Source: Pirellulales bacterium (GTDB lineage: Bacteria > Planctomycetota > Planctomycetia > Pirellulales > PALSA-1355). Taken from it: a DNA stretch of 64,000 bases. The position numbers and the translations under genes were made by a program. Position 1 is the first letter of the stretch. Each line of letters begins with the position of its first letter. Shown here in pieces: positions 17,810 to 52,936 of this stretch. Under the pieces are notes generated by a model that saw only the letters and a program-made list of their open reading frames with translations, did not search any database and was not told the DNA's origin. The DNA lies in NCBI GenBank assembly GCA_022844125.1, contig JALHMI010000004.1:352777-416776 (forward strand). The letters are read 5' to 3'.

Positions 17810-18301
17810 CTAAGCTTCGGGTTTCTTCGGCGGCGAGAGCTTGATCTTCTGGATCAGTTTGACGATGCGTCCGTCCGGCGTGACATATCCGGAGATCGCG
17901 GTGACCGCGCCGATGACGTTGCGATACTTCAGGTTGTAGTCGCAATCCAGTTCGGCTTCGTTGTTCTCGGTGGCGTCGGGGCCGGCATTCGTCCCCACGC
18001 GGCTCATGACTTTCTCGTGCAGGGCGGTGAAGTTTGGCAGAACCGCATCATCCATGCGGATGCTGGCCAGATTTCCATCGCCATCCGCGGTCAGCCGCAC
18101 CTTGATTGGCAGATCGGTTTGCAGGCTCGTCGAGCTGGCCGGACCGGCCACCGGCATGCGAATGTTGAAATCGCCTTCCTGCGTCACGATCTTGAAGCTG
18201 AACAGAAAGAAGATCAGCAGTTGAAACACGATGTCGATCATCGGAGTCATCTGGATCTCGACCTTTTCGGGAGCCTGGCTCGCGGTATGTCTCAGCTTCA
18301 T
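17810..18301 (-). CDS. ExbD/TolR-family motor subunit (second of two)
   Basis: A 163-aa single-span protein. Residues 17-40 carry the ExbD/TolR hallmark MTPMIDIVFQLLIFFLF, with the proton-carrying Asp23, followed by a periplasmic domain of about 115 residues. Its ATG overlaps the stop of the preceding exbD-like gene by 4 bases, so translation is coupled. It is the last gene of an operon with two TPR proteins, an ExbB and another ExbD. The pair of ExbD paralogues per one ExbB recalls the AglR-AglQ-AglS gliding motor of Myxococcus as well as Ton-type energisers; which applies here is unknown. Confidence 0.88.
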   Translation of the reverse strand: MKLRHTASQAPEKVEIQMTPMIDIVFQLLIFFLFSFKIVTQEGDFNIRMPVAGPASSTSLQTDLPIKVRLTADGDGNLASIRMDDAVLPNFTALHEKVMSRVGTNAGPDATENNEAELDCDYNLKYRNVIGAVTAISGYVTPDGRIVKLIQKIKLSPPKKPEA

Positions 18302-18747
18302 GACTCTTCGTCCTCCTGCTTGGCCCGCAGGGCGAAGTTCTCAAAGCCGTTCTCCTGACATTTCTGAATCACTTCCTGCACGACGCCTGTTTTCGACTCC
18401 GCATCGGCCCGCAGAATGACCGTGGCGTCCTCCGGCTTCTCGCCGCTGAGAGTGATGAATCGTGCTTCTCGGCGAAGTTTCTCGTCGAGCCCCGCAATCG
18501 GCATCAACTCGCCGCTGAATAGCACCTGGTTATCGCCAGTGAGCTGCACGACCAGGGCGTTCTCGAGCGCCGTTTCCGGCGGCTTGGCCAACTGGCTGCT
18601 GGGAAGCCGGATGCGCGCATCCTGCTCGGCCTCGCCGAAGTTCAGCAGCACCATGAAAAACGCGATCAACTGGAACGTCATGTCGATCATCGGCGTCATG
18701 TCCGGTTCCAGCGCTGCCGCGGTCGTTTTGGGCTTAATGATCTTCAT
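18298..18747 (-). CDS. ExbD/TolR-family motor subunit (first of two)
   Basis: The 149-aa protein has a short cytoplasmic N-terminus, then MTPMIDMTFQLIAFFMVLL (about residues 17-35) with the conserved Asp, then a small periplasmic domain. It differs from the downstream paralogue in sequence but has the same architecture, suggesting a heteromeric ExbD pair. It lies 38 bp after the exbB-like gene. It uses proton flow through ExbB to drive an envelope process across the periplasm. The ribosome site upstream of ATG 18747 is weak. Confidence 0.88.
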   Translation of the reverse strand: MKIIKPKTTAAALEPDMTPMIDMTFQLIAFFMVLLNFGEAEQDARIRLPSSQLAKPPETALENALVVQLTGDNQVLFSGELMPIAGLDEKLRREARFITLSGEKPEDATVILRADAESKTGVVQEVIQKCQENGFENFALRAKQEDEES

Positions 18748-18785
18748 CGCGATTGCCGACGTGCCTGCTGATCTTGCCTGAAACG

Positions 18786-19568
18786 CTACTTTTTCGGACC
18801 GACGTTCTGGAACCGGCTCATCAAGCGTTCGCTGTAGATCCCGACCTCCAGCACCAACCGCTGCAAGCGATTGCGGAAATAGCCGAACATCGCGATTGCC
18901 GGAATCGCCAACATGAGCCCGACGAGCGTTGTGATCAGGGCCGTTGAGATGCCCTGTGCCAGGTCCGCTGGTTTCGGCTGCGTATTACTCGAGGCGATCA
19001 CGCGAAACGCCGCGACCATACCCTGCACGGTTCCCAGCAGACCCACCATGGGGCTAATCGTGCCAATCAGGGCGATGTAGCTGAGCCGTTGTTCCAGTCG
19101 CATGTTTTCGTCTTCGCCCACTTCCTGCATCGCCTCGACGGCTTGCGGATAGCCCTCTTGCAGCTTGGCGAGCCCCGCGGCGAGCACATGCCCCAGGAAG
19201 CTGTCGTCGTTCTTGGCCAGTTCGTAGGCTTCCTGGAATCGCTTCTCGTTCAGCATCACTTCAAAGTTATCGATCAAGTCCTGCGGCACGACGGCTTGTC
19301 GGCGCAGCGACATGATGTTCATGACCACCAAGGCGACGAAGATGAACGAAATCGCCAGGAACACGATCGTGTAGAACGGCCCCAGCGCGCCGTAGTAGAA
19401 CCCGAGCGCACTCTGCTGAACCGGCGCCGCGTCGGCGGCCGCGGCCGGATCCTGGGCCAGTGCCACCTGGCTGAAAAGTAGATCGCTCACCGGCGCCACG
19501 GCCAGGCCAAAGGCGATCGCGCACAACAGGGCATAGGCATGTTGCCGCAGGCGAGTTCGTTTCCGCAT
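18786..19568 (-). CDS. MotA/TolQ/ExbB-family proton channel
   Basis: This 260-aa membrane protein starts at ATG 19568 with AGAGGAA upstream. An N-terminal signal-like segment ends near ALAQ (residue 39). The three ExbB transmembrane helices are about 60-82 (TIVFLAISFIFVALVVMNI), 160-182 (GTISPMVGLLGTVQGMVAAF) and 205-228 (LITTLVGLMLAIPAIAMF). The conserved Gly/Thr-rich core GLLGTVQGM is present. It forms the pentameric channel around the ExbD dimer. The signal-like N-terminus is an extra compared with E. coli ExbB and is frequent in TPR-linked ExbB proteins. Confidence 0.9.
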   Translation of the reverse strand: MRKRTRLRQHAYALLCAIAFGLAVAPVSDLLFSQVALAQDPAAAADAAPVQQSALGFYYGALGPFYTIVFLAISFIFVALVVMNIMSLRRQAVVPQDLIDNFEVMLNEKRFQEAYELAKNDDSFLGHVLAAGLAKLQEGYPQAVEAMQEVGEDENMRLEQRLSYIALIGTISPMVGLLGTVQGMVAAFRVIASSNTQPKPADLAQGISTALITTLVGLMLAIPAIAMFGYFRNRLQRLVLEVGIYSERLMSRFQNVGPKK

Positions 19569-43607: not shown

Positions 43608-44585
43608 TTACTGCGCGGTCGACTTGCTGCCTTTCGGAGAAGCGCCAATGGCCATGCCGTGCGGCAGCGGCCGAGCGGCGACGGCATAACCCAGCTCGTA
43701 CAGTTCCTTCTTGAGCCGCGCGTATTCCGCGAAGCTGTCGGGATATGTCCAGATCGTGATCGTGTACGTGTCGGGCGACATGCGCGCTAGCGCGGCGCGA
43801 AACTCCGAGCCTTCGCGCAGAGCATCGTCAACCGGCTCGCCAAGCTGGCTGCTGGTAGGCAGGAACTCGACGAATGAGAGCTCGAATACCGAACCCTGGG
43901 CAACGTCACGCCTCGAGACTACATATCGCATGCGAAACCCTTCGATCGGTCCGATCATGTCGACCAGTTCGTTGCTGTTTCCCATCCGGCCGACCGCACT
44001 GCGCAGGATGCTCCGCAGTCGCGCGATAAGCAGGTCCATTGGCAGCACGGCGAGTCGCCCTCCCTTGAGCTGCAAGTGCGCTTCGTTGTCATCCACGGTC
44101 TTGCCCAGTGGCGTGGGATAGCTGGTGATCTGTACGATTTGCGGTGTCATCGCCTTCTCGACCATCTCACGTTCTGTATTGGCTTTTGCCAGCGCATCTT
44201 CGGCCAGGGCCAGATCGCGGTCGATGGCATACTGCGCGCCCTTTGTTTCGCCCAGTGTCTGCTGTTGTTTAGCAAGTTCCTGCTCCACGGCCGTGGTCAA
44301 CGTCTGCAGTTGGCTCCGTTCGATCGCACGTACTTGAATTTCCTGCTGGACGCCCAGCATCTGGCCCTGTATCTCCTGTAAGTCACGCTCGAGCGACTGG
44401 GCTTCGTGACGAGCCTGAACGAACTCAGGGCTCGGCACCGCGGCCTGCGCAGGAACCGGCGCCAACTTGGCCCGCTCTCCCACGACCATCACCAGGATGA
44501 TCAAGATCCCGACGATGTTCGTGATTACATCGAGAAAGGAGTCGGCGCCAACCGCCTCTTGATCGCTTGCTTGTCGTCGTGCCAT
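43608..44585 (-). CDS. ExbD/MotB-like single-span coiled-coil protein
   Basis: A 325-aa protein, last gene of a three-gene unit. Residues 14-38 contain one membrane helix with an Asp at its cytoplasmic edge (ADSFLDVITNIVGILIILV), positioned like the proton Asp of ExbD or MotB. A coiled coil follows (about 55-145), then a periplasmic beta/alpha domain (about 170-310) that I do not recognise; no OmpA-type peptidoglycan motif is visible. ATG 44585 has GGGA upstream and lies 18 bp after the preceding gene. It probably forms the stator partner of the ExbB-like channel encoded upstream. Confidence 0.75.
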   Translation of the reverse strand: MARRQASDQEAVGADSFLDVITNIVGILIILVMVVGERAKLAPVPAQAAVPSPEFVQARHEAQSLERDLQEIQGQMLGVQQEIQVRAIERSQLQTLTTAVEQELAKQQQTLGETKGAQYAIDRDLALAEDALAKANTEREMVEKAMTPQIVQITSYPTPLGKTVDDNEAHLQLKGGRLAVLPMDLLIARLRSILRSAVGRMGNSNELVDMIGPIEGFRMRYVVSRRDVAQGSVFELSFVEFLPTSSQLGEPVDDALREGSEFRAALARMSPDTYTITIWTYPDSFAEYARLKKELYELGYAVAARPLPHGMAIGASPKGSKSTAQ

Positions 44586-44603
44586 GATGATCCCGGCCGA
44601 GAA

Positions 44604-46688
44604 CTATCTCTGGTTGGTGGGGCGAACCGTCTGTTGCGTTGCGCGCCGCTGCACTTCGAGTCCGCTGTCGCTCAGCAACAGTTGTATGTCGTGGAACCGG
44701 TCGTCACCGCCGGGGAGTACTTCGACGACCAGCGTGGGCTTCCAGTACATGCCCCGCCCCGCCTTTCCCCAGCTCTCGGTCTGCGTCCAAATGCCCGAGA
44801 TCAAATCATCGATCGCTGCTTCCGTTGAAGGACCCAGTGCAATTTCGTTCGCCGCCTGGCCACGCGATTCGGGTACGATCACGATTTTGTCGGCGGAACA
44901 GCGGACGAGAATCGGTCGCGTCGCGCCGATTGAGCCGACCTGGCTGCTTACGCCCCAGCCGCGACCGCGAGTCACCGCGATACTCTGAGTCGCCTTGGTT
45001 CGTGTTCCTAGCATCGATGGATTCGGCTGGTGATCGAGCGTCAAGCTCTCAGGCACATTGTGCCTGGCGACGTCCGGAACGTCGGTGCTCTGCTCGGGGT
45101 CTGCGGCGGAAGCGTTCGTCGCAGAGTGTGCCGAACCCGGCGAACCGCCAGCGGTGGACTTACTAGCACCAGCCATCAGGTGATAGTTGTTCTTGGATTC
45201 GGCTCCGGCCTGGCCACCGGGACGTGCAGCGGGATTTCCAGTCGGCGCGCGAGCATGCGCCGGCCCGCCGCCTACCGTCGCCGGTCCGACTCGAGTCTGG
45301 GGCACGCTTTCACCTCCGGCCGGGCCATCGAATTTCCCGTCTGGTCCGCCAGCGCTGCTGTATGGGCCGGTCTGGGGCTCTGCCCCGCCGAGGCTAGTTC
45401 CCGGTCCGCTCGTGCCGCCCGCCGTTCCATTCTGCATCTCGGCGAACTGGCGGCCTTCGATCGTGGCGCTACTATTTCCGGGCCGCATCTGGGGTCCGAT
45501 TGTGCCTGGTTCGGCGTAGGGATCGCCTCCACCGGTGCCGGTTGGCGCGTATGCACTCAATGACGAGTCGGCCGAGCCGCTGAAACTGTCGTTGCCACTC
45601 GAAGCGAATTCGCCTCCTGTCCCGCGTGTGCCACTATCTCCGCGGCTCCAATTCTCAGGCTCTTCCCAGCCACCCAGGAAACTTCCGCCCGGGCCATCGC
45701 CCGTGCCGGGCACCTGGGCGATCCCGCCGTGTGACTTGGCGTGGAAGACGGGCTTGGAACGACCCTTTCGGAACTGCGGCGAGCTCGCAATATATTCTGC
45801 TAATCGCTTGCGCGCTTCGCTAACCACGGTCGCAGTAAGTTGCTTTAGCTCGGGATCGCTGGGCGGATACGACAAAGTCCAGTCGGCGCCGATCAATTCA
45901 TAACCGAAATCGCTCCCCCAGGACTCCAATGCTGCCCGGGCGGCATAGTACGATGCTATCCCCTCGGGCCGCACGATCAATAGCGGGTAAGGTTCTTCTT
46001 GCAGGGTTCCACCGGGCGAAAGCTTGGCAAAGTACTCACGCTGAGCTCGCAGGCCTGCCGCCAGCGGATTACCGGGGCCGAAGTACCCAATAAAGTCTTC
46101 TGGAGAGAGTTCGATTCCCTCGGGTTGTAGCACGATCTTTTGTTCGCAGCATTCGATGTAGATCGGTCGCCGGTGCGTACCACTACGCCCGTCGAACGGC
46201 ACGATCGAATAGTTGACAACCTCGTGCTTCCCCTTCTTGCGGGCTTCGTCGACCGCCGCACGCGTTTTGGCAAGTTCGTCCTGAACTCTAGCCAGTTCGG
46301 CATGGTTCTGTGTCTGTTCGTTGGCGTGGGAATTACCAGCCTTCTCAAGCTCGGCAACCGCGATTCTGAGCTGGTGAAACTTTTCTTCCAGCCGTCGCTG
46401 ATGCTCTTCGATATGGCTGAGCTTCAAACGTTCCGCTTCCAGATCGGCTTGCGTCTTGGTGCGCGCTTCGCGCAAGTGCGTGGAACGCCAGCGGAAGTAG
46501 TCGGCATCAAGCTCATCCTGCTCATTTTGCGCGCGATTCTTGGCTTGGGCCGCTTTCTCAGCCTCTTGCCTGCCATGGCTGGCAAAGGCGTGCAACAGCA
46601 CCACCAGCGCTCCCATCGTGCAGATCAGCACGGCGAGGAACGGGAAGAGTTGAATGCCCGCAGGTTTGGCACCTCCGCGCCTGCTCAT
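44604..46688 (-). CDS. Large membrane-anchored coiled-coil protein, second motor-cassette subunit
   Basis: A 694-aa protein. One N-terminal membrane helix (residues 13-35, IQLFPFLAVLICTMGALVVLL) lacks the acidic residue of its partner. A coiled coil (about 40-150) is followed by a folded domain (about 155-320) containing IYIECCEQKIVLQPEG and PEDFIGYFGPGNPL. A long Gly/Ser/Pro-rich linker (about 325-560) leads to a C-terminal domain with PILVRCSADKIVIVP, which resembles the first domain and suggests an internal duplication. Its ATG overlaps the stop of the ExbB-like gene (ATGA), so translation is coupled. The function is unknown. Confidence 0.72.
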   Translation of the reverse strand: MSRRGGAKPAGIQLFPFLAVLICTMGALVVLLHAFASHGRQEAEKAAQAKNRAQNEQDELDADYFRWRSTHLREARTKTQADLEAERLKLSHIEEHQRRLEEKFHQLRIAVAELEKAGNSHANEQTQNHAELARVQDELAKTRAAVDEARKKGKHEVVNYSIVPFDGRSGTHRRPIYIECCEQKIVLQPEGIELSPEDFIGYFGPGNPLAAGLRAQREYFAKLSPGGTLQEEPYPLLIVRPEGIASYYAARAALESWGSDFGYELIGADWTLSYPPSDPELKQLTATVVSEARKRLAEYIASSPQFRKGRSKPVFHAKSHGGIAQVPGTGDGPGGSFLGGWEEPENWSRGDSGTRGTGGEFASSGNDSFSGSADSSLSAYAPTGTGGGDPYAEPGTIGPQMRPGNSSATIEGRQFAEMQNGTAGGTSGPGTSLGGAEPQTGPYSSAGGPDGKFDGPAGGESVPQTRVGPATVGGGPAHARAPTGNPAARPGGQAGAESKNNYHLMAGASKSTAGGSPGSAHSATNASAADPEQSTDVPDVARHNVPESLTLDHQPNPSMLGTRTKATQSIAVTRGRGWGVSSQVGSIGATRPILVRCSADKIVIVPESRGQAANEIALGPSTEAAIDDLISGIWTQTESWGKAGRGMYWKPTLVVEVLPGGDDRFHDIQLLLSDSGLEVQRRATQQTVRPTNQR

Positions 46689-48016
46689 GCCGCCTGGCCT
46701 TTTCGGGTGCCGCTGTTAAGATCAATCCGCGCGGCATCTGCCGGCGACAGCCGTGTGCTCAAGAGGCCGATGGCCGCCGAGAGCGAAATGACCGTCTCTT
46801 CGAAGTGCTGTGCGCCGGCCAGCGCCGAGAGGTTGCGATTCAATTCCGACTCGAGCCGGGCCACCTGATCCGACGCTCCGACCACTTGCGACAGCAGCTC
46901 TGTCTGGCGAGTCATTTCGCGTTGCTGGCTGGCCACGGCCGCGGCATTTTGCAGCAGGGCTTGCTGCACGCCTTGCCAATGCTCGCGGCTTTCGGCCGCG
47001 ATCGCGCGTTCGGCGCTCGCCAGCGTCAGGGCGTGCTGTTCAACGCTCTGGTTCATGGCCCCGGCGAGCGAGGCTTCAATCACCTTGGCCGAGGCTTGCG
47101 TCTGCTGCGCCCACTGCTCGTACATCGCCCGCAGACTCTGTTGCCAGATTTCAGCCTGCCGGACCACCACCTTGTCGAGCGCGCCCAATACGTTTTCCGC
47201 GATCCGGCGCACGATGTTCACGTCCGGATCGGCCGAGGCGTCGGCGTCGGTAATGAATCGTCCCACAAGTTCCGCGTTGGCTCGCTCGTCGACCTGCGAG
47301 AGCAGTTGGCTCTCATAGCGTTCCACAAAGTACTTTACGAACATCAGCACGATCGACAGCGACAGCGACAGGGCCGTCGTGTCGAAGGCGACGCCCAGGC
47401 CGCTGGTCACGCCCGAAAGCGAGGCTTCCAGGGCCTTGGGGCTGAGATTGCCCACGGCGCCCGTGATGCCGATGATCGTGCCCAGGAAGCCCATGATCGG
47501 TACGGCCCAGACGACGAACCACACCAGGGCGTATGACGATTGCATGCGCCCCGCGTCGAGGTCCGAAAGGTAGCGAATCTCCTCGTCGAGCCCCGCGGCC
47601 GAGTTCTTGCGGTACACGAACTCGAGCGCCTCGCGCAGACGCCGCACCAGGTAACTGTCTTGCCAGGAATCGGGGAGTTTCGCGAGCCGCGCCAGCAGGT
47701 TCTCGCAATGGGCCACGTCCTGTCCGCCGGGCGGAATCGCATCCAGCATCGGCTCGGAGAGGATCTGCGACTGCCCGACGAGGTTGGTGACCTTTAGAAG
47801 GAGCGACGCCACGCCAATGCAGAACATCGCGACCGTGACGTACTCTGCCCAGTGGCCGGCAAAGTAACGGAGCACAAAGGCATGGGCACTGTAACCCGAG
47901 AGCAGCTCCGAGTTGCGACTGATTTCCAACGGGACATAGACGGCCAGCGTGGCAAGTCCGCCCCAGACGACTGGCGACCACACGATGGCCCGGGCGATTC
48001 GATTGACCTGGTTCAC
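46685..48016 (-). CDS. MotA/TolQ/ExbB-type channel with long C-terminal helical tail
   Basis: About 443 aa from GTG 48016, 8 bases after AAGGA; the GTG at 48025 abuts the ribosome site and is less likely. Membrane helices are near 15-32, 60-80, 158-180 and 210-232. The pair WFVVWAVPIMGFLGTIIGITGAVG and FDTTALSLSLSIVLMF matches the MotA/ExbB core, including GFLGTIIG and a TT pair. From about 260 to 430 a long helical tail follows, unlike ExbB but comparable to ZorA-type or TolQ-like long-tail channels. It heads the three-gene cassette. Confidence 0.82.
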   Translation of the reverse strand: MNQVNRIARAIVWSPVVWGGLATLAVYVPLEISRNSELLSGYSAHAFVLRYFAGHWAEYVTVAMFCIGVASLLLKVTNLVGQSQILSEPMLDAIPPGGQDVAHCENLLARLAKLPDSWQDSYLVRRLREALEFVYRKNSAAGLDEEIRYLSDLDAGRMQSSYALVWFVVWAVPIMGFLGTIIGITGAVGNLSPKALEASLSGVTSGLGVAFDTTALSLSLSIVLMFVKYFVERYESQLLSQVDERANAELVGRFITDADASADPDVNIVRRIAENVLGALDKVVVRQAEIWQQSLRAMYEQWAQQTQASAKVIEASLAGAMNQSVEQHALTLASAERAIAAESREHWQGVQQALLQNAAAVASQQREMTRQTELLSQVVGASDQVARLESELNRNLSALAGAQHFEETVISLSAAIGLLSTRLSPADAARIDLNSGTRKGQAA

Positions 48017-50622: not shown

Positions 50623-52095
50623 ATGGCCACGCGCAAGTTCATCACGCTTGAAGAAGCGGCGAGCATGTTGGGCGTTTCCACCGACACCGTGAGCGAAATG
50701 CGCGACCGTGGCAAGATCCACGGCTATCGCGACGGTGGCAGTTGGAAATTCAAGCCCGAGGAAATCGAACGTGCGATCGCCGATCGCGATTCCGCCGAGG
50801 AAGAAGGCGACTATGCCGAGGTGAACGAAGACCCCGATTCGATCCTGCTCAGCGAAGTCGAACTGGGCCAATCGGACGAAAGCACCTCGAGCACGATCAT
50901 TGGCGGCAAGCCCAGCCGCAACCCGGCCGAAAGCGACATTACACTCGCCCCGGATAGCGCCATCGACATTCAGCTCAAACAGCCCAAGGGCGATAGCAGC
51001 CTCGATCTCGACTCGGCCCTGACGCTGGAGCCCAGCAGCGGTTCGGACGTGCTCGATATTGGCTCCGGACTACAGGAGGGCTCGGGCGCAAAGAGTGGCT
51101 CGGGCCTTGGCTCCGGTCTTAGCCCAATGTTCGATGATCTCGATACGCTCGATCTCGACCTGCCAAGCGCCGCCGATAGCGGCATTAGTTCCAAGATCTT
51201 GATGGATGTGCCCCCGGCCGATGGGCCCGGCGCCAGCAAGACGGTCATCGGCGCGGGCCGTTCCGCGGAAGGCTCCGGCCTGGGGCTCGCCAACGAAGAT
51301 GAACTCGCCCTGGGCGAAGCCGCGGCCGATGATGAAATCCTGCTCGACGTCGATGCCGGCGGTTCGGCCATCGATCTGGCCGAGGACGTGGATGACGATC
51401 TCGTGCTGGGCGGCAGTTCGCACGGTGACATCTCGCGCACCGGTGATAGCGGTATCTCGCTCTTGAACCCGTCCGACAGCGGGCTCTCGCTCGAATCGGC
51501 TCCCATGGAACTTGGCGGCTCGGGGATCGTCGATTCGCTCAACCTGGGTGATGACGACCTGCTGCTCGATGAAGAGTCGCCCGCCGCGGCGGGCGCGGAC
51601 GGAGGCATTTCCGGCATCGGCGACCTGGGTGTCGAAGCCGCGGACGATCAATCGGACGACGACTTCCTGCTCACCCCGCTCGAAGAAGGCGCGGCCGAAG
51701 AGTCGGACAGCGGTTCGCAAGTCATCGCCCTTGATGACGACGTGGAGTTTGAAGAAGCCGGCGTGGGCGCGCTCGATGACGGCGGCGGCGGTGGTCTGCT
51801 TGAAGATGATCTGGGCGAAGGCTTTGGCGGCGGCGCGGCGCTCGGTGCCGAGGCACTTTCGGCCGCGCCCGCCCGGGGCATGGCGCCGGCGGCTGCCGGA
51901 GCCCCGATGATGGCCGCCGCGCCCGAAGCCCCGTTCAGTTTGTGGAACGTGCTCAGTCTGGCCTTGTGCTCGGTGCTTCTCTTGATGTGCGGGATGTTCA
52001 CGTTCGACTTGCTCCGCAACATGTGGAGTTGGAACGAAGCCTATAGCGTTAACAGCAGCATGATGGATATGGTGCTGAGTTGGTTTGAAGGTTAA
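50623..52095 (+). CDS. Helix-turn-helix protein with acidic linker and C-terminal membrane anchor
   Basis: A 490-aa protein. Residues 5-55 are an excisionase/MerR-type winged HTH (ITLEEAASMLGVSTDTVSEM, then WKFKPEEIERAI). Residues about 60-410 are a low-complexity, acidic, Ser/Gly/Asp-rich linker with recurring SGSGLGSGL, DSGISLL and GDDDLLLDE blocks. Near the end comes a hydrophobic helix of about 22 residues (VLSLALCSVLLLMCGMFTF) and a short tail. This predicts a DNA-binding domain tethered to the inner membrane from the C-terminal side. An OmpA-like lipoprotein gene lies 73 bp downstream. Confidence 0.78.
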   Translation: MATRKFITLEEAASMLGVSTDTVSEMRDRGKIHGYRDGGSWKFKPEEIERAIADRDSAEEEGDYAEVNEDPDSILLSEVELGQSDESTSSTIIGGKPSRNPAESDITLAPDSAIDIQLKQPKGDSSLDLDSALTLEPSSGSDVLDIGSGLQEGSGAKSGSGLGSGLSPMFDDLDTLDLDLPSAADSGISSKILMDVPPADGPGASKTVIGAGRSAEGSGLGLANEDELALGEAAADDEILLDVDAGGSAIDLAEDVDDDLVLGGSSHGDISRTGDSGISLLNPSDSGLSLESAPMELGGSGIVDSLNLGDDDLLLDEESPAAAGADGGISGIGDLGVEAADDQSDDDFLLTPLEEGAAEESDSGSQVIALDDDVEFEEAGVGALDDGGGGGLLEDDLGEGFGGGAALGAEALSAAPARGMAPAAAGAPMMAAAPEAPFSLWNVLSLALCSVLLLMCGMFTFDLLRNMWSWNEAYSVNSSMMDMVLSWFEG

Positions 52096-52168: not shown

Positions 52169-52936
52169 ATGCACCTAACACATTGCCACATTCGTGCCCT
52201 GCCTGTGTTGCTGGCAACATGCGCTGCTGTGGCACTCTCTGGCGCCGGCTGCTCCAGTTCCAATACGCAGACCGCGACGCTGCAATCGCAAAACCGAATC
52301 CTCACCGAGCAGAACCGCGCGCAGCTTGCCGAGATTCAGAATCTGAAGATTCACAACCGGCAAACCGAGGACAAGCTCATCCAGGCTGAGCGAGAACTCG
52401 CGCAACTCGACGCGAGCCGCCGGCTGGCCGGCAATCAACTCCCCGTCGGCATGAGCACCCGGCTGGCCGCCCTCGCCGAGCGCTACCCGTTTCTGCAATA
52501 CGATCCGCAGACGGGCATCAGCAAGCTCGACACCGACGTGCTGTTCGATTCCGGCCAGGCGGATCTGAAGCCTAGCGCTGACCAGGCCCTGGCCGAGATT
52601 GCCGAGATCTTTACCGCGCCTGACGGACGTGAGTTCAAGCTGATGGTCGTCGGCCATGCCGATGCGCAAGCCATTCGCGGCGAAGAGCTCCGCTCGCGCT
52701 ACCCCAGCAACTGGCACTTGAGCGCCGGTCGCGCGCTGGCCGTCGCCGATTGGCTGCGCCAGAGCGGAATTCCCGAATCGCGGATGGGCGTGGCGGGCTT
52801 CGGGCAGCATCAGCCCATCGCCAGCAATGACTCGGACGACACCCGCAGCCGCAATCGCCGCGTCGAGATCTACGTCCTCGGCCCGGAAACGCCGCTCGTG
52901 GGCTGGGCTGATACGTCGGGAAGGTTCTATCGCTAG
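52169..52936 (+). CDS. OmpA-family outer-membrane-type lipoprotein
   Basis: A 255-aa protein from ATG 52169, with AAAGGAG upstream. The N-terminus has a lipoprotein-like signal ending SGAGC (Cys28). A coiled coil (about 35-85, LQSQNRILTEQNRAQLAEIQ) precedes the OmpA domain (about 110-240) with VLFDSGQADLKPSADQAL, VVGHADAQA, LSAGRALAVADWL and RNRRVEIYV. OmpA domains bind peptidoglycan meso-diaminopimelate, here linking a membrane to the cell wall. Planctomycete peptidoglycan supports this role; it may also be a Pal-like partner of the motor loci in the window. Confidence 0.87.
   Translation: MHLTHCHIRALPVLLATCAAVALSGAGCSSSNTQTATLQSQNRILTEQNRAQLAEIQNLKIHNRQTEDKLIQAERELAQLDASRRLAGNQLPVGMSTRLAALAERYPFLQYDPQTGISKLDTDVLFDSGQADLKPSADQALAEIAEIFTAPDGREFKLMVVGHADAQAIRGEELRSRYPSNWHLSAGRALAVADWLRQSGIPESRMGVAGFGQHQPIASNDSDDTRSRNRRVEIYVLGPETPLVGWADTSGRFYR

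What the first reader, a model, noticed from the sequence alone, without database searches (positions are those of the whole stretch)
43608..48016. Motor-like cassette: ExbB/MotA-type channel plus two oversized single-span coiled-coil proteins
Three tightly coupled genes (4-bp overlap, then 18 bp) encode a long-tailed ExbB/MotA-type channel and two proteins that each have one N-terminal membrane helix followed by a coiled coil. Only one of these helices carries an Asp at the ExbD/MotB proton position (SFLDVITNIVG); the other (LFPFLAVLICTMG) does not. The 694-aa partner has two related-looking beta domains separated by a ~235-residue Gly/Pro/Ser linker. No OmpA, TonB, helicase or nuclease partner is adjacent, so neither Ton/Tol nor Zorya fits fully. 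It may be an undescribed proton-driven envelope or defence machine with a hetero-stator.
Basis: partly seen in the sequence, partly recalled or inferred. Interest (0 to 1): 0.7.

Follow-up and report, generated by a model that had tools for sequence, protein, structure and literature searches.

The report
Planctomycete envelope motor with mismatched axle
Three neighbouring genes, found in nearly every sampled member of this bacterial order, most likely build a proton-driven motor in the inner membrane whose central axle pairs two different proteins, only one of which carries the usual proton-binding acid; this would let one ask how many such acids a rotary motor needs.

Summary
The trio is real and the coordinates are right: a MotA/ExbB channel (P1), a 694-aa protein (P2) and a 325-aa protein (P3). 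It is not a defence island: among 57 genomes of the order (own included) P1 and P2 are in 57 and P3 in 55 (both gaps at contig ends).

Two results go beyond the finding and support a shared, unlike axle. (1) P2's membrane helix has no acid where P3 has Asp19, except when the genome carries a second channel type (His in TM3, Asn in TM4) that is never joined to P2. P2 then has Asp or Glu: 18 of 20 such genomes against 0 of 79 with the usual channel. This channel is one clade on its own tree but scattered on the P2+P3 tree (one clade rejected, AU p 1e-31). (2) Helix-to-domain spacing in P2 and P3 changes together (contrast r 0.93; nine control pairs at most 0.18).

The two helices are homologous (hhalign), and P2's two beta domains are a duplication of weakly ExbD/TolR-like fold. 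The window's genome has no TonB_C or Plug match, so Ton-type uptake is unlikely.

Best reading: a 5:1:1 proton motor acting on the envelope; stoichiometry and task are inferred. A new variant of the 5:2 motors; my searches found no description.

The parts
46685..48016 (-). P1: channel, MotA/TolQ/ExbB family, four membrane segments and a long C-terminal tail, presumed cytoplasmic (start GTG 48016; first possible GTG 48025)
   Evidence: ORF, PF01618 E 2e-13, weak ZorA match E 8e-8, hydropathy, upstream AAGGAG
47468..47470 (-). P1 residue 186 (446-aa numbering), Gly here; His in the second channel type
   Evidence: alignment of 99 genomes; three residues after the Thr that aligns with the GTV motif of TolQ
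47381..47383 (-). P1 residue 215, Asp here (AFDTT); Asn in the second channel type
   Evidence: Asp in 76 of 79 genomes with the usual channel (2 Asn, 1 unread), Asn in 20 of 20 with the second type
44604..46688 (-). P2: 694 aa; N-terminal membrane helix, coiled coil, beta domain 1, disordered linker, beta domain 2
   Evidence: found in 57 of 57 genomes of the order, own included
46632..46634 (-). P2 residue 19, Ala here: the place of the Asp in P3; Asp/Glu in 18 of 20 genomes with the second channel type
46224..46568 (-). P2 coiled coil, residues about 41-155
   Evidence: AlphaFold2 helices 15-117 and 119-155
45870..46214 (-). P2 beta domain 1, residues about 159-273
   Evidence: partial resemblance to TolR 5by4, Z 6.2
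45000..45695 (-). P2 disordered Gly/Ser/Ala/Pro linker, residues about 332-563
   Evidence: pLDDT under 50; Gly322 to Arg591 spans 115-481 residues in 53 genomes
44646..44930 (-). P2 beta domain 2, residues about 587-681
   Evidence: resembles ExbD periplasmic domain 8p9r, Z 6.2, 71 of 74 residues; homologous to domain 1
43608..44585 (-). P3: 325 aa; N-terminal membrane helix with Asp19, coiled coil, beta domain
   Evidence: Asp19 in 114 of 114 aligned rows, some rows being the same genome twice
44529..44531 (-). P3 Asp19 (SFLDV), the presumed proton-carrying acid
44151..44429 (-). P3 coiled coil, residues 53-145
43641..44093 (-). P3 beta domain, residues about 165-315
   Evidence: no clear fold match

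Best explanation
P1 forms a pentameric proton channel in the inner membrane. One P2 and one P3 run side by side through it as an unlike pair (5:1:1), held together by a parallel coiled coil of matched length. Protons loaded on P3 Asp19 drive stepwise rotation or a conformational cycle of this axle against P1. In the usual type P2 has no acid at that place, so the axle carries a single acid (P1 Asp215 may assist); with the second channel type P2 gains an acid and the axle has two, like ExbD2 or MotB2. Beyond the membrane P2's flexible linker and second beta domain reach across the periplasm to peptidoglycan or the outer membrane, so the machine works as a Tol-like envelope energiser of these planctomycetes. 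Shown by comparison: conserved trio, homologous helices, acid/channel covariation, matched spacing. Inferred: pentamer, 1:1 ratio, rotation, proton use, envelope target.
For: P1 and P2 are in 57 and P3 in 55 of 57 genomes of the order; in both genomes without P3 (G050, G052) P2 runs into a contig end. P2 and P3 helices are homologous with A19 opposite D19 (hhalign p 2.6e-7 and 3.4e-7 in the two directions; 2.7e-5 with other settings); eight comparisons with P1 membrane segments gave p 0.05-0.76. P2 residue 19 is acidic in 18 of 20 genomes with the His/Asn channel and 0 of 79 with the usual one. That channel is one clade on the P1 tree (support 100) but needs 8 changes on the P2 tree of 97 rows (acid 7) and 5 on the P2+P3 tree of 55 (acid 5), where one clade is rejected with AU p 1e-31 (12 rows against 43, quick tree). 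So P2's helix answers to a channel gene that is not joined to it. Spacing from residue 19 to the beta domain: contrast r 0.93 over 53 contrasts, 0 of 20,000 permutations, 0.66 without the five largest; nine control length pairs had r from -0.10 to 0.18. Matched Pro-rich inserts sit just after the helix in both proteins in several genomes. P2 domain 2 resembles ExbD over 71 of 74 residues.
Against: No complex was modelled, so pore occupancy is inferred. G039 (Ser) and G622 (Ala) have the second channel without an acid in P2. G044 and G054 have neither P1 Asp215 nor a P2 acid, so the charge does not simply move between proteins. Independent pairs on supported branches are only 4 (sign test not significant). 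Spacing covariation rests on the longer cases: without the four longest, 84 rows gave Spearman 0.11, p 0.31; the rank version of the contrasts (0.52) does not stand clear of two controls (0.46, 0.39). ExbD/TolR fold matches tie with unrelated folds, and profile matches of the helices and of domain 2 to ExbD are weak (p 0.02-0.03; domain 1 and P3's domain none, p 0.28 and 0.16). P3's domain has no clear fold match. Nothing found names the target.
Confidence: 0.6

Rival explanations
1. A Ton-like three-part machine: P3 is a homodimer inside P1 (5:2), and P2 is a TonB-like transducer whose helix docks on the outside of the ring.
For: Gene content channel + long-linker protein + ExbD-like protein; TonB's helix binds ExbB subunits with 1:5:2 stoichiometry (PMC12905483 passages; that the site is peripheral is partly recalled); P2 has a long flexible linker and a terminal domain.
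Against: P2's helix is homologous to P3's with position 19 in register, gains Asp/Glu just there when the channel differs, and its rod length follows P3's. The window's own genome has no TonB_C or Plug match.
Confidence: 0.2
2. Two separate homodimeric motors share one channel: P1 with P2-P2 and P1 with P3-P3.
For: Axles of the known 5:2 structures are dimers of one protein (MotB, ExbD, GldM; PMC9389320 passages, partly recalled); GldL carries the essential glutamate in the pentamer itself (PMC8986121 passages), so P1 Asp215 could drive an acid-free P2 dimer.
Against: P2 and P3 spacing changes together, hard to explain without contact; they are encoded side by side in most loci seen; G044 and G054 lack Asp215.
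Confidence: 0.1
3. A passive or gated channel or envelope tether rather than a motor.
For: No direct evidence of proton flow or motion in any call; function is inferred from family (PF01618).
Against: Asp19 of P3 kept in 114 of 114 rows; P1 belongs to the MotA/ExbB family.
Confidence: 0.07
4. A Zorya-like anti-phage system.
For: P1 resembles ZorA in PADLOC (E 8e-8) and has a long tail; its best PDB profile hit, 8vvi, is a MotA/TolQ/ExbB-domain protein with a long tail (E 0.006; that it is a ZorA is a guess). A Pal-like protein 4.1 kb away matches ZorB models through its OmpA domain (E 4e-24).
Against: Near-universal in the order; no OmpA domain in P2 or P3; the eight neighbouring proteins scanned match no Zorya effector and are mostly GatB, aminotransferase, PTPS, QueC and the like; P3 absent from the plasmid and phage sets; the OmpA gene is near the trio in only 8 of 137 anchors.
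Confidence: 0.03

Closest known systems
AglRQS of Myxococcus xanthus gliding
   Same: One channel and two MotB homologues; whether the two form hetero- or homodimers is an open question (PMC9389320 passage)
   Different: No Agl sequence was compared here. P2 and P3 have long coiled coils, and P2 usually lacks the acid; that AglQ and AglS are smaller and both carry the Asp is recalled, not tested
ExbB-ExbD-TonB (Ton system)
   Same: ExbB-family channel, ExbD-like helix and weakly ExbD-like domains, a partner with a long flexible linker
   Different: P2 has an ExbD-type helix and two ExbD-like domains instead of TonB_C; the window's genome has no TonB_C or Plug match
TolQ-TolR (Tol-Pal)
   Same: Channel family; P2 domain 1 resembles TolR (Z 6.2); a Pal-like lipoprotein lies 4.1 kb away
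   Different: No ExbD/TolR-family match for P2 or P3; coiled coil and long linker are not part of TolR as I recall it; the Pal-like gene was found near the trio in only 8 of 137 anchors
ZorA-ZorB (Zorya)
   Same: Long-tailed MotA-type channel; closest PADLOC match of P1
   Different: ZorA and ZorB form a 5:2 complex, ZorB binding peptidoglycan (PMC11890865 abstract); here two OmpA-less partners, and no effector among the neighbours scanned
GldL-GldM
   Same: Precedent for an acid in the pentamer (GldL E49, PMC8986121 passages), compare P1 Asp215
   Different: GldM dimerises and has four periplasmic domains (PMC9389320 passages); no Gld sequence was compared here

Membership tests
MotA/TolQ/ExbB channel family (PF01618) | Profile match above the curated cut-off | tested here: met
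   P1 50.6 bits against cut-off 22.9
ExbD/TolR family (PF02472) | Profile match above the curated cut-off by P2 or P3 | tested here: not met
   No PF02472 match for the window's P2 and P3, nor among the families listed for 42 P3 and 43 P2 sequences
ExbD/TolR family (PF02472) | N-terminal helix with Asp at the proton site | tested here: met
   P3 Asp19 in 114 of 114 rows; its register with planctomycete ExbD rests on weak hhalign matches only (p 0.02-0.03); P2 of the window lacks it
ExbD/TolR family (PF02472) | ExbD-type periplasmic fold | tested here: inconclusive
   P2 domain 2 with ExbD 8p9r Z 6.2 over 71 of 74 residues, domain 1 with TolR 5by4 Z 6.2, but tied with unrelated folds; P3 unassigned
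Ton system | TonB C-terminal domain and Plug receptors in the genome | tested here: not met
   Own genome: no PF03544 and no PF07715 match; of 19 genomes 9 have TonB_C and 13 Plug
Zorya | ZorB with OmpA domain beside ZorA, plus ZorCD or ZorE | tested here: not met
   No OmpA match in P2 or P3. Eight neighbouring proteins show no Zorya effector; one of them, 4.1 kb away, matches ZorB models through its OmpA domain. ZorE role from the abstract, ZorCD recalled
5:2 rotary motors | Pentamer around two single-helix axle chains | not testable with these tools
   No multimer prediction available; two axle-type proteins present
5:2 rotary motors | Two identical axle chains, each with an acid (as in MotB, ExbD; recalled) | tested here: inconclusive
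   Comparative data favour an unlike pair with one acid, not shown physically
MotAB | OmpA-type peptidoglycan-binding domain on the axle protein | tested here: not met
   None in P2 or P3

The most novel reading that the evidence does not exclude
The ancestral motor of this class turns an axle with one proton-carrying acid (P3 only). Several lineages replaced the channel with a His/Asn type not joined to P2, and each then gained a second acid at the same place in P2. Nature would thus hold a repeated series of one-acid and two-acid versions of one motor, with G039 and G622 as possible halfway states.
Probability: 0.45. Interest if true: 0.85.

Novelty: new variant of a known kind. Interest (0 to 1): 0.7.

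Why it matters
Known 5:2 ion motors are pictured with two like axle chains. A motor with an unlike axle and a single acid would test how many proton sites are needed and how steps are shared. It would also give these planctomycetes, some of which (the window's genome included) show no recognisable TonB, a conserved envelope motor of their own, and it bears on the open question whether AglQ and AglS pair as a heterodimer. The recurring channel swap offers ready-made natural pairs for experiments.

Tried and rejected
Defence system: rejected on near-universal presence, housekeeping neighbours and absence of P3 from the phage and plasmid sets, although a nearby OmpA gene matches ZorB models. Ton-type uptake: unlikely for this genome. 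Simple charge exchange between P1 Asp215 and P2 residue 19: rejected, since G044 and G054 (and the short paralogues G017p, G033p) have Asn215 with no acid in P2.

Conserved neighbour as functional clue: only genes of no evident link recur (HTH_17 protein in 39 of 137 anchors, aminotransferase 27, QueC 21). A Pal-like gene seemed promising but was near the trio in only 8 of 137 anchors, and in 5 of the 27 with the HTH gene and room beyond it. Twelve loci of the second-type channel showed no recurrent partner beyond closely related genomes or the trio's own surroundings.

Fold searches: Foldseek gave no hit at E 0.001 or better for P3 or P2. P3's domain gave a mixed list (IS621, RuvC/YqgF-like, actin-like, ribosomal, Pur-alpha), best Z 6.1, which may mean only a common arrangement; no ExbD or TolR chain was among the 50 rows shown. 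Sequence searches of solved structures with P3 and P2 profiles listed 49 and 19 chains, mostly coiled coils, none named ExbD or TolR.

Script faults: one search returned no P3 rows (pattern fault), repeated. One search used wrong reading frames for ExbD; its ExbD rows are void and one search replaces them. One search used another alignment mode, with weaker values for the helices (2.7e-5) and the P2 domains (1.5e-7). Rows dropped: one search kept 88 of 114 (rows without the anchor residues, among them G018, and duplicates removed); one search dropped G006; one search used 97 of 99 rows for the tree.

Sampling: eight of the 20 second-type genomes came from a deliberate search, so 20 of 99 is not a frequency; in the order sample that channel was recognised in 20 of 296 genomes by identity to the query.

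Literature: searches listed no paper that, by title and start of abstract, describes the trio; the single papers listed in 78 and 94 were not opened. One search found no mention of ExbB, TolQ, MotA or Tol-Pal in the main text of the Planctopirus essential-gene paper. Supplements could not be read, and most subscription papers are not held.

Full report
WHAT IS THERE. On the minus strand, P1 (ending 46685), P2 (46688-44604) and P3 (44585-43608) are joined by a 4-bp overlap and an 18-bp gap. P1 is a MotA/TolQ/ExbB channel (PF01618 E 2e-13) with four hydrophobic segments and a long C-terminal tail. P2 and P3 match no Pfam family above its cut-off; the weak matches of their relatives are scattered, mostly coiled-coil families, with no ExbD or OmpA family listed. 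AlphaFold2 on alignments of 42 and 43 sequences gives P3 (mean pLDDT 83.7) a helix 15-40, a coiled coil 53-145 and a beta domain; and P2 (mean 69.3) a helix and coiled coil to 155, beta domain 1, a disordered stretch at about 332-563 and beta domain 2. Single chains only; the complex was not modelled.

HOW WIDESPREAD. In 57 genomes of the order (own included) P1 and P2 occur in 57 and P3 in 55. In the two genomes without P3 (G050, G052) P2 runs into a contig end. In a phylum sample P2 is found in 55 of 392 genomes: 12 of the order, 27 of the same class in two families, and 16 elsewhere with weak, mostly short matches. One same-class genome (G161) is listed without a match; 317 unmatched genomes are not listed. 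A second, shorter trio whose P2 has no linker or second domain occurs in some genomes (G004, G017, G030, G033). P3 has no match in 72,556 plasmid or 50,697 phage records. This is a housekeeping distribution.

TWO CHANNEL TYPES. In 45 of the 57 genomes P1 has Gly186 (446-aa numbering), mostly with Asp215, and lies on the same contig as P2 in 43 (the other two sit at contig breaks), usually with the 4-bp overlap. In 12 a second type with His186 and Asn215, 26-30% identical to P1, takes its place; no genome showed both. With eight more found by a targeted search, the second type is on another contig than P2 in 10 of 20, inverted on the same contig in 3, and on the same strand but about 0.6-2.5 kb away in 7 (read). 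Across 99 genomes P2 residue 19 is Asp in 17, Glu in 1, Ser in 1 and Ala in 1 of 20 genomes with the second type, and never acidic in 79 with the first (residues). All 25 genomes examined of family f21 (same class, another order) have the first type without an acid, which suggests that this is ancestral; the root was not inferred. In the window's own family the sister genus (G001, G003) has the second channel and Asp in P2, while the window (G000) and G002 have the first channel and Ala.

INDEPENDENCE. On the channel tree (103 rows) the second type is one clade, support 100. On the P2 tree (97 rows; membrane helix and linker left out) it needs 8 changes and the acid 7; on the P2+P3 tree (55 rows) 5 and 5, with one clade rejected at AU p 1e-31. 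All trees are of the quick kind. Independent pairs on well-supported branches are too few for a sign test (4 pairs; median p 0.25 and 0.125), but the acid never went the other way. The pattern fits repeated replacement of the channel, by transfer or by differential loss, followed by gain of the acid. G039 and G622, without the acid, branch outside the other 18 second-type channels (support 81, not starred).

UNLIKE AXLE. The P2 and P3 helices are homologous (hhalign p about 3e-7; 2.7e-5 in another mode), with A19 of P2 opposite D19 of P3; eight comparisons with P1 membrane segments gave p 0.05-0.76. The distance from residue 19 to the beta domain varies together in P2 and P3: median 169 and 159 residues, longest 256 and 234; contrast r 0.93, 0 of 20,000 permutations, 0.66 without the five largest contrasts. 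Nine control pairs (linker, domain sizes, P1 tail and loop) gave r from -0.10 to 0.18. Against this: the signal sits in the longer cases, and without the four longest 84 rows gave Spearman 0.11; the rank form of the contrasts (0.52) is not clear of two controls (0.46 and 0.39); G015 and G045 have a longer P2 without a longer P3. In G008, G022, G033 and G053 the inserts lie just after the helix in both proteins and are rich in Pro in both.

DOMAINS. P2 domains 1 and 2 are homologous (p 1.4e-8 to 3.8e-8). Domain 2 aligns with ExbD (8p9r, Z 6.2, 71 of 74 residues, rmsd 2.7) and domain 1 with TolR (5by4, Z 6.2, 81 residues), but YqgF and actin-like folds score the same, so the fold call is suggestive only. 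Direct profile comparison with 17 planctomycete ExbD sequences is weak for the helices and domain 2 (p 0.02-0.03) and absent for domain 1 and P3's domain. P3's domain is unassigned.

FUNCTION. The own genome has two further ExbB and three ExbD genes but no TonB_C or Plug match, so the trio is unlikely to serve TonB-type uptake here. Neighbours are GatB, SAM hydroxide adenosyltransferase, a class III aminotransferase, PTPS, QueC, an HTH_17 protein and, 4.1 kb away, a Pal-like OmpA lipoprotein; several recur beside the trio, none is telling, and the OmpA gene matches ZorB models by its OmpA domain. I therefore propose an envelope motor that acts through P2's tethered second domain; this last step is inference.

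COMPARISON. 5:2 motors are reviewed in PMC9389320 (passages), which leaves open whether AglQ and AglS pair as hetero- or homodimers. GldL E49 shows that the working acid can sit in the pentamer (PMC8986121 passages). TonB binds ExbBD at 1:5:2 (PMC12905483 passages). ZorAB is a 5:2 complex with a long tail (PMC11890865 abstract and outline). None matches the trio. Searches listed no description of it.

Noticed in passing
window 17897-19202: A conventional ExbB followed by two ExbD genes on the minus strand (genome C4:370673-371978), a separate energiser operon in the same window.
   Followed up: no
window 52169-52936: Pal-like OmpA lipoprotein (PF00691 E 5e-20; PADLOC ZorB3 E 4e-24 through the OmpA domain) with a lipobox-like N-terminus, 4.1 kb upstream of the trio on the other strand.
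   Followed up: partly
window 50623-52095: Protein with an N-terminal HTH_17 domain, a long acidic low-complexity middle and a C-terminal hydrophobic segment; found near the trio in 39 of 137 anchors.
   Followed up: partly
L074, L075, L076, L077 (G017, G033, G004, G030): A shorter paralogous trio: P2 without linker and second domain (PFLSV or PFLSI helix); P1 in L075 with a weak N-terminal zinc-ribbon match.
   Followed up: partly
L078-L085: Second-type channel as an orphan gene at unrelated places (for example beside SMC-like or DnaE-like genes, named by eye), with no recurrent partner there beyond closely related genomes.
   Followed up: yes
window 43611-43649 (P3 C-terminus): P3 ends in a conserved tail, IGGSPxGSKSxAQ in consensus, of unknown use.
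   Followed up: no
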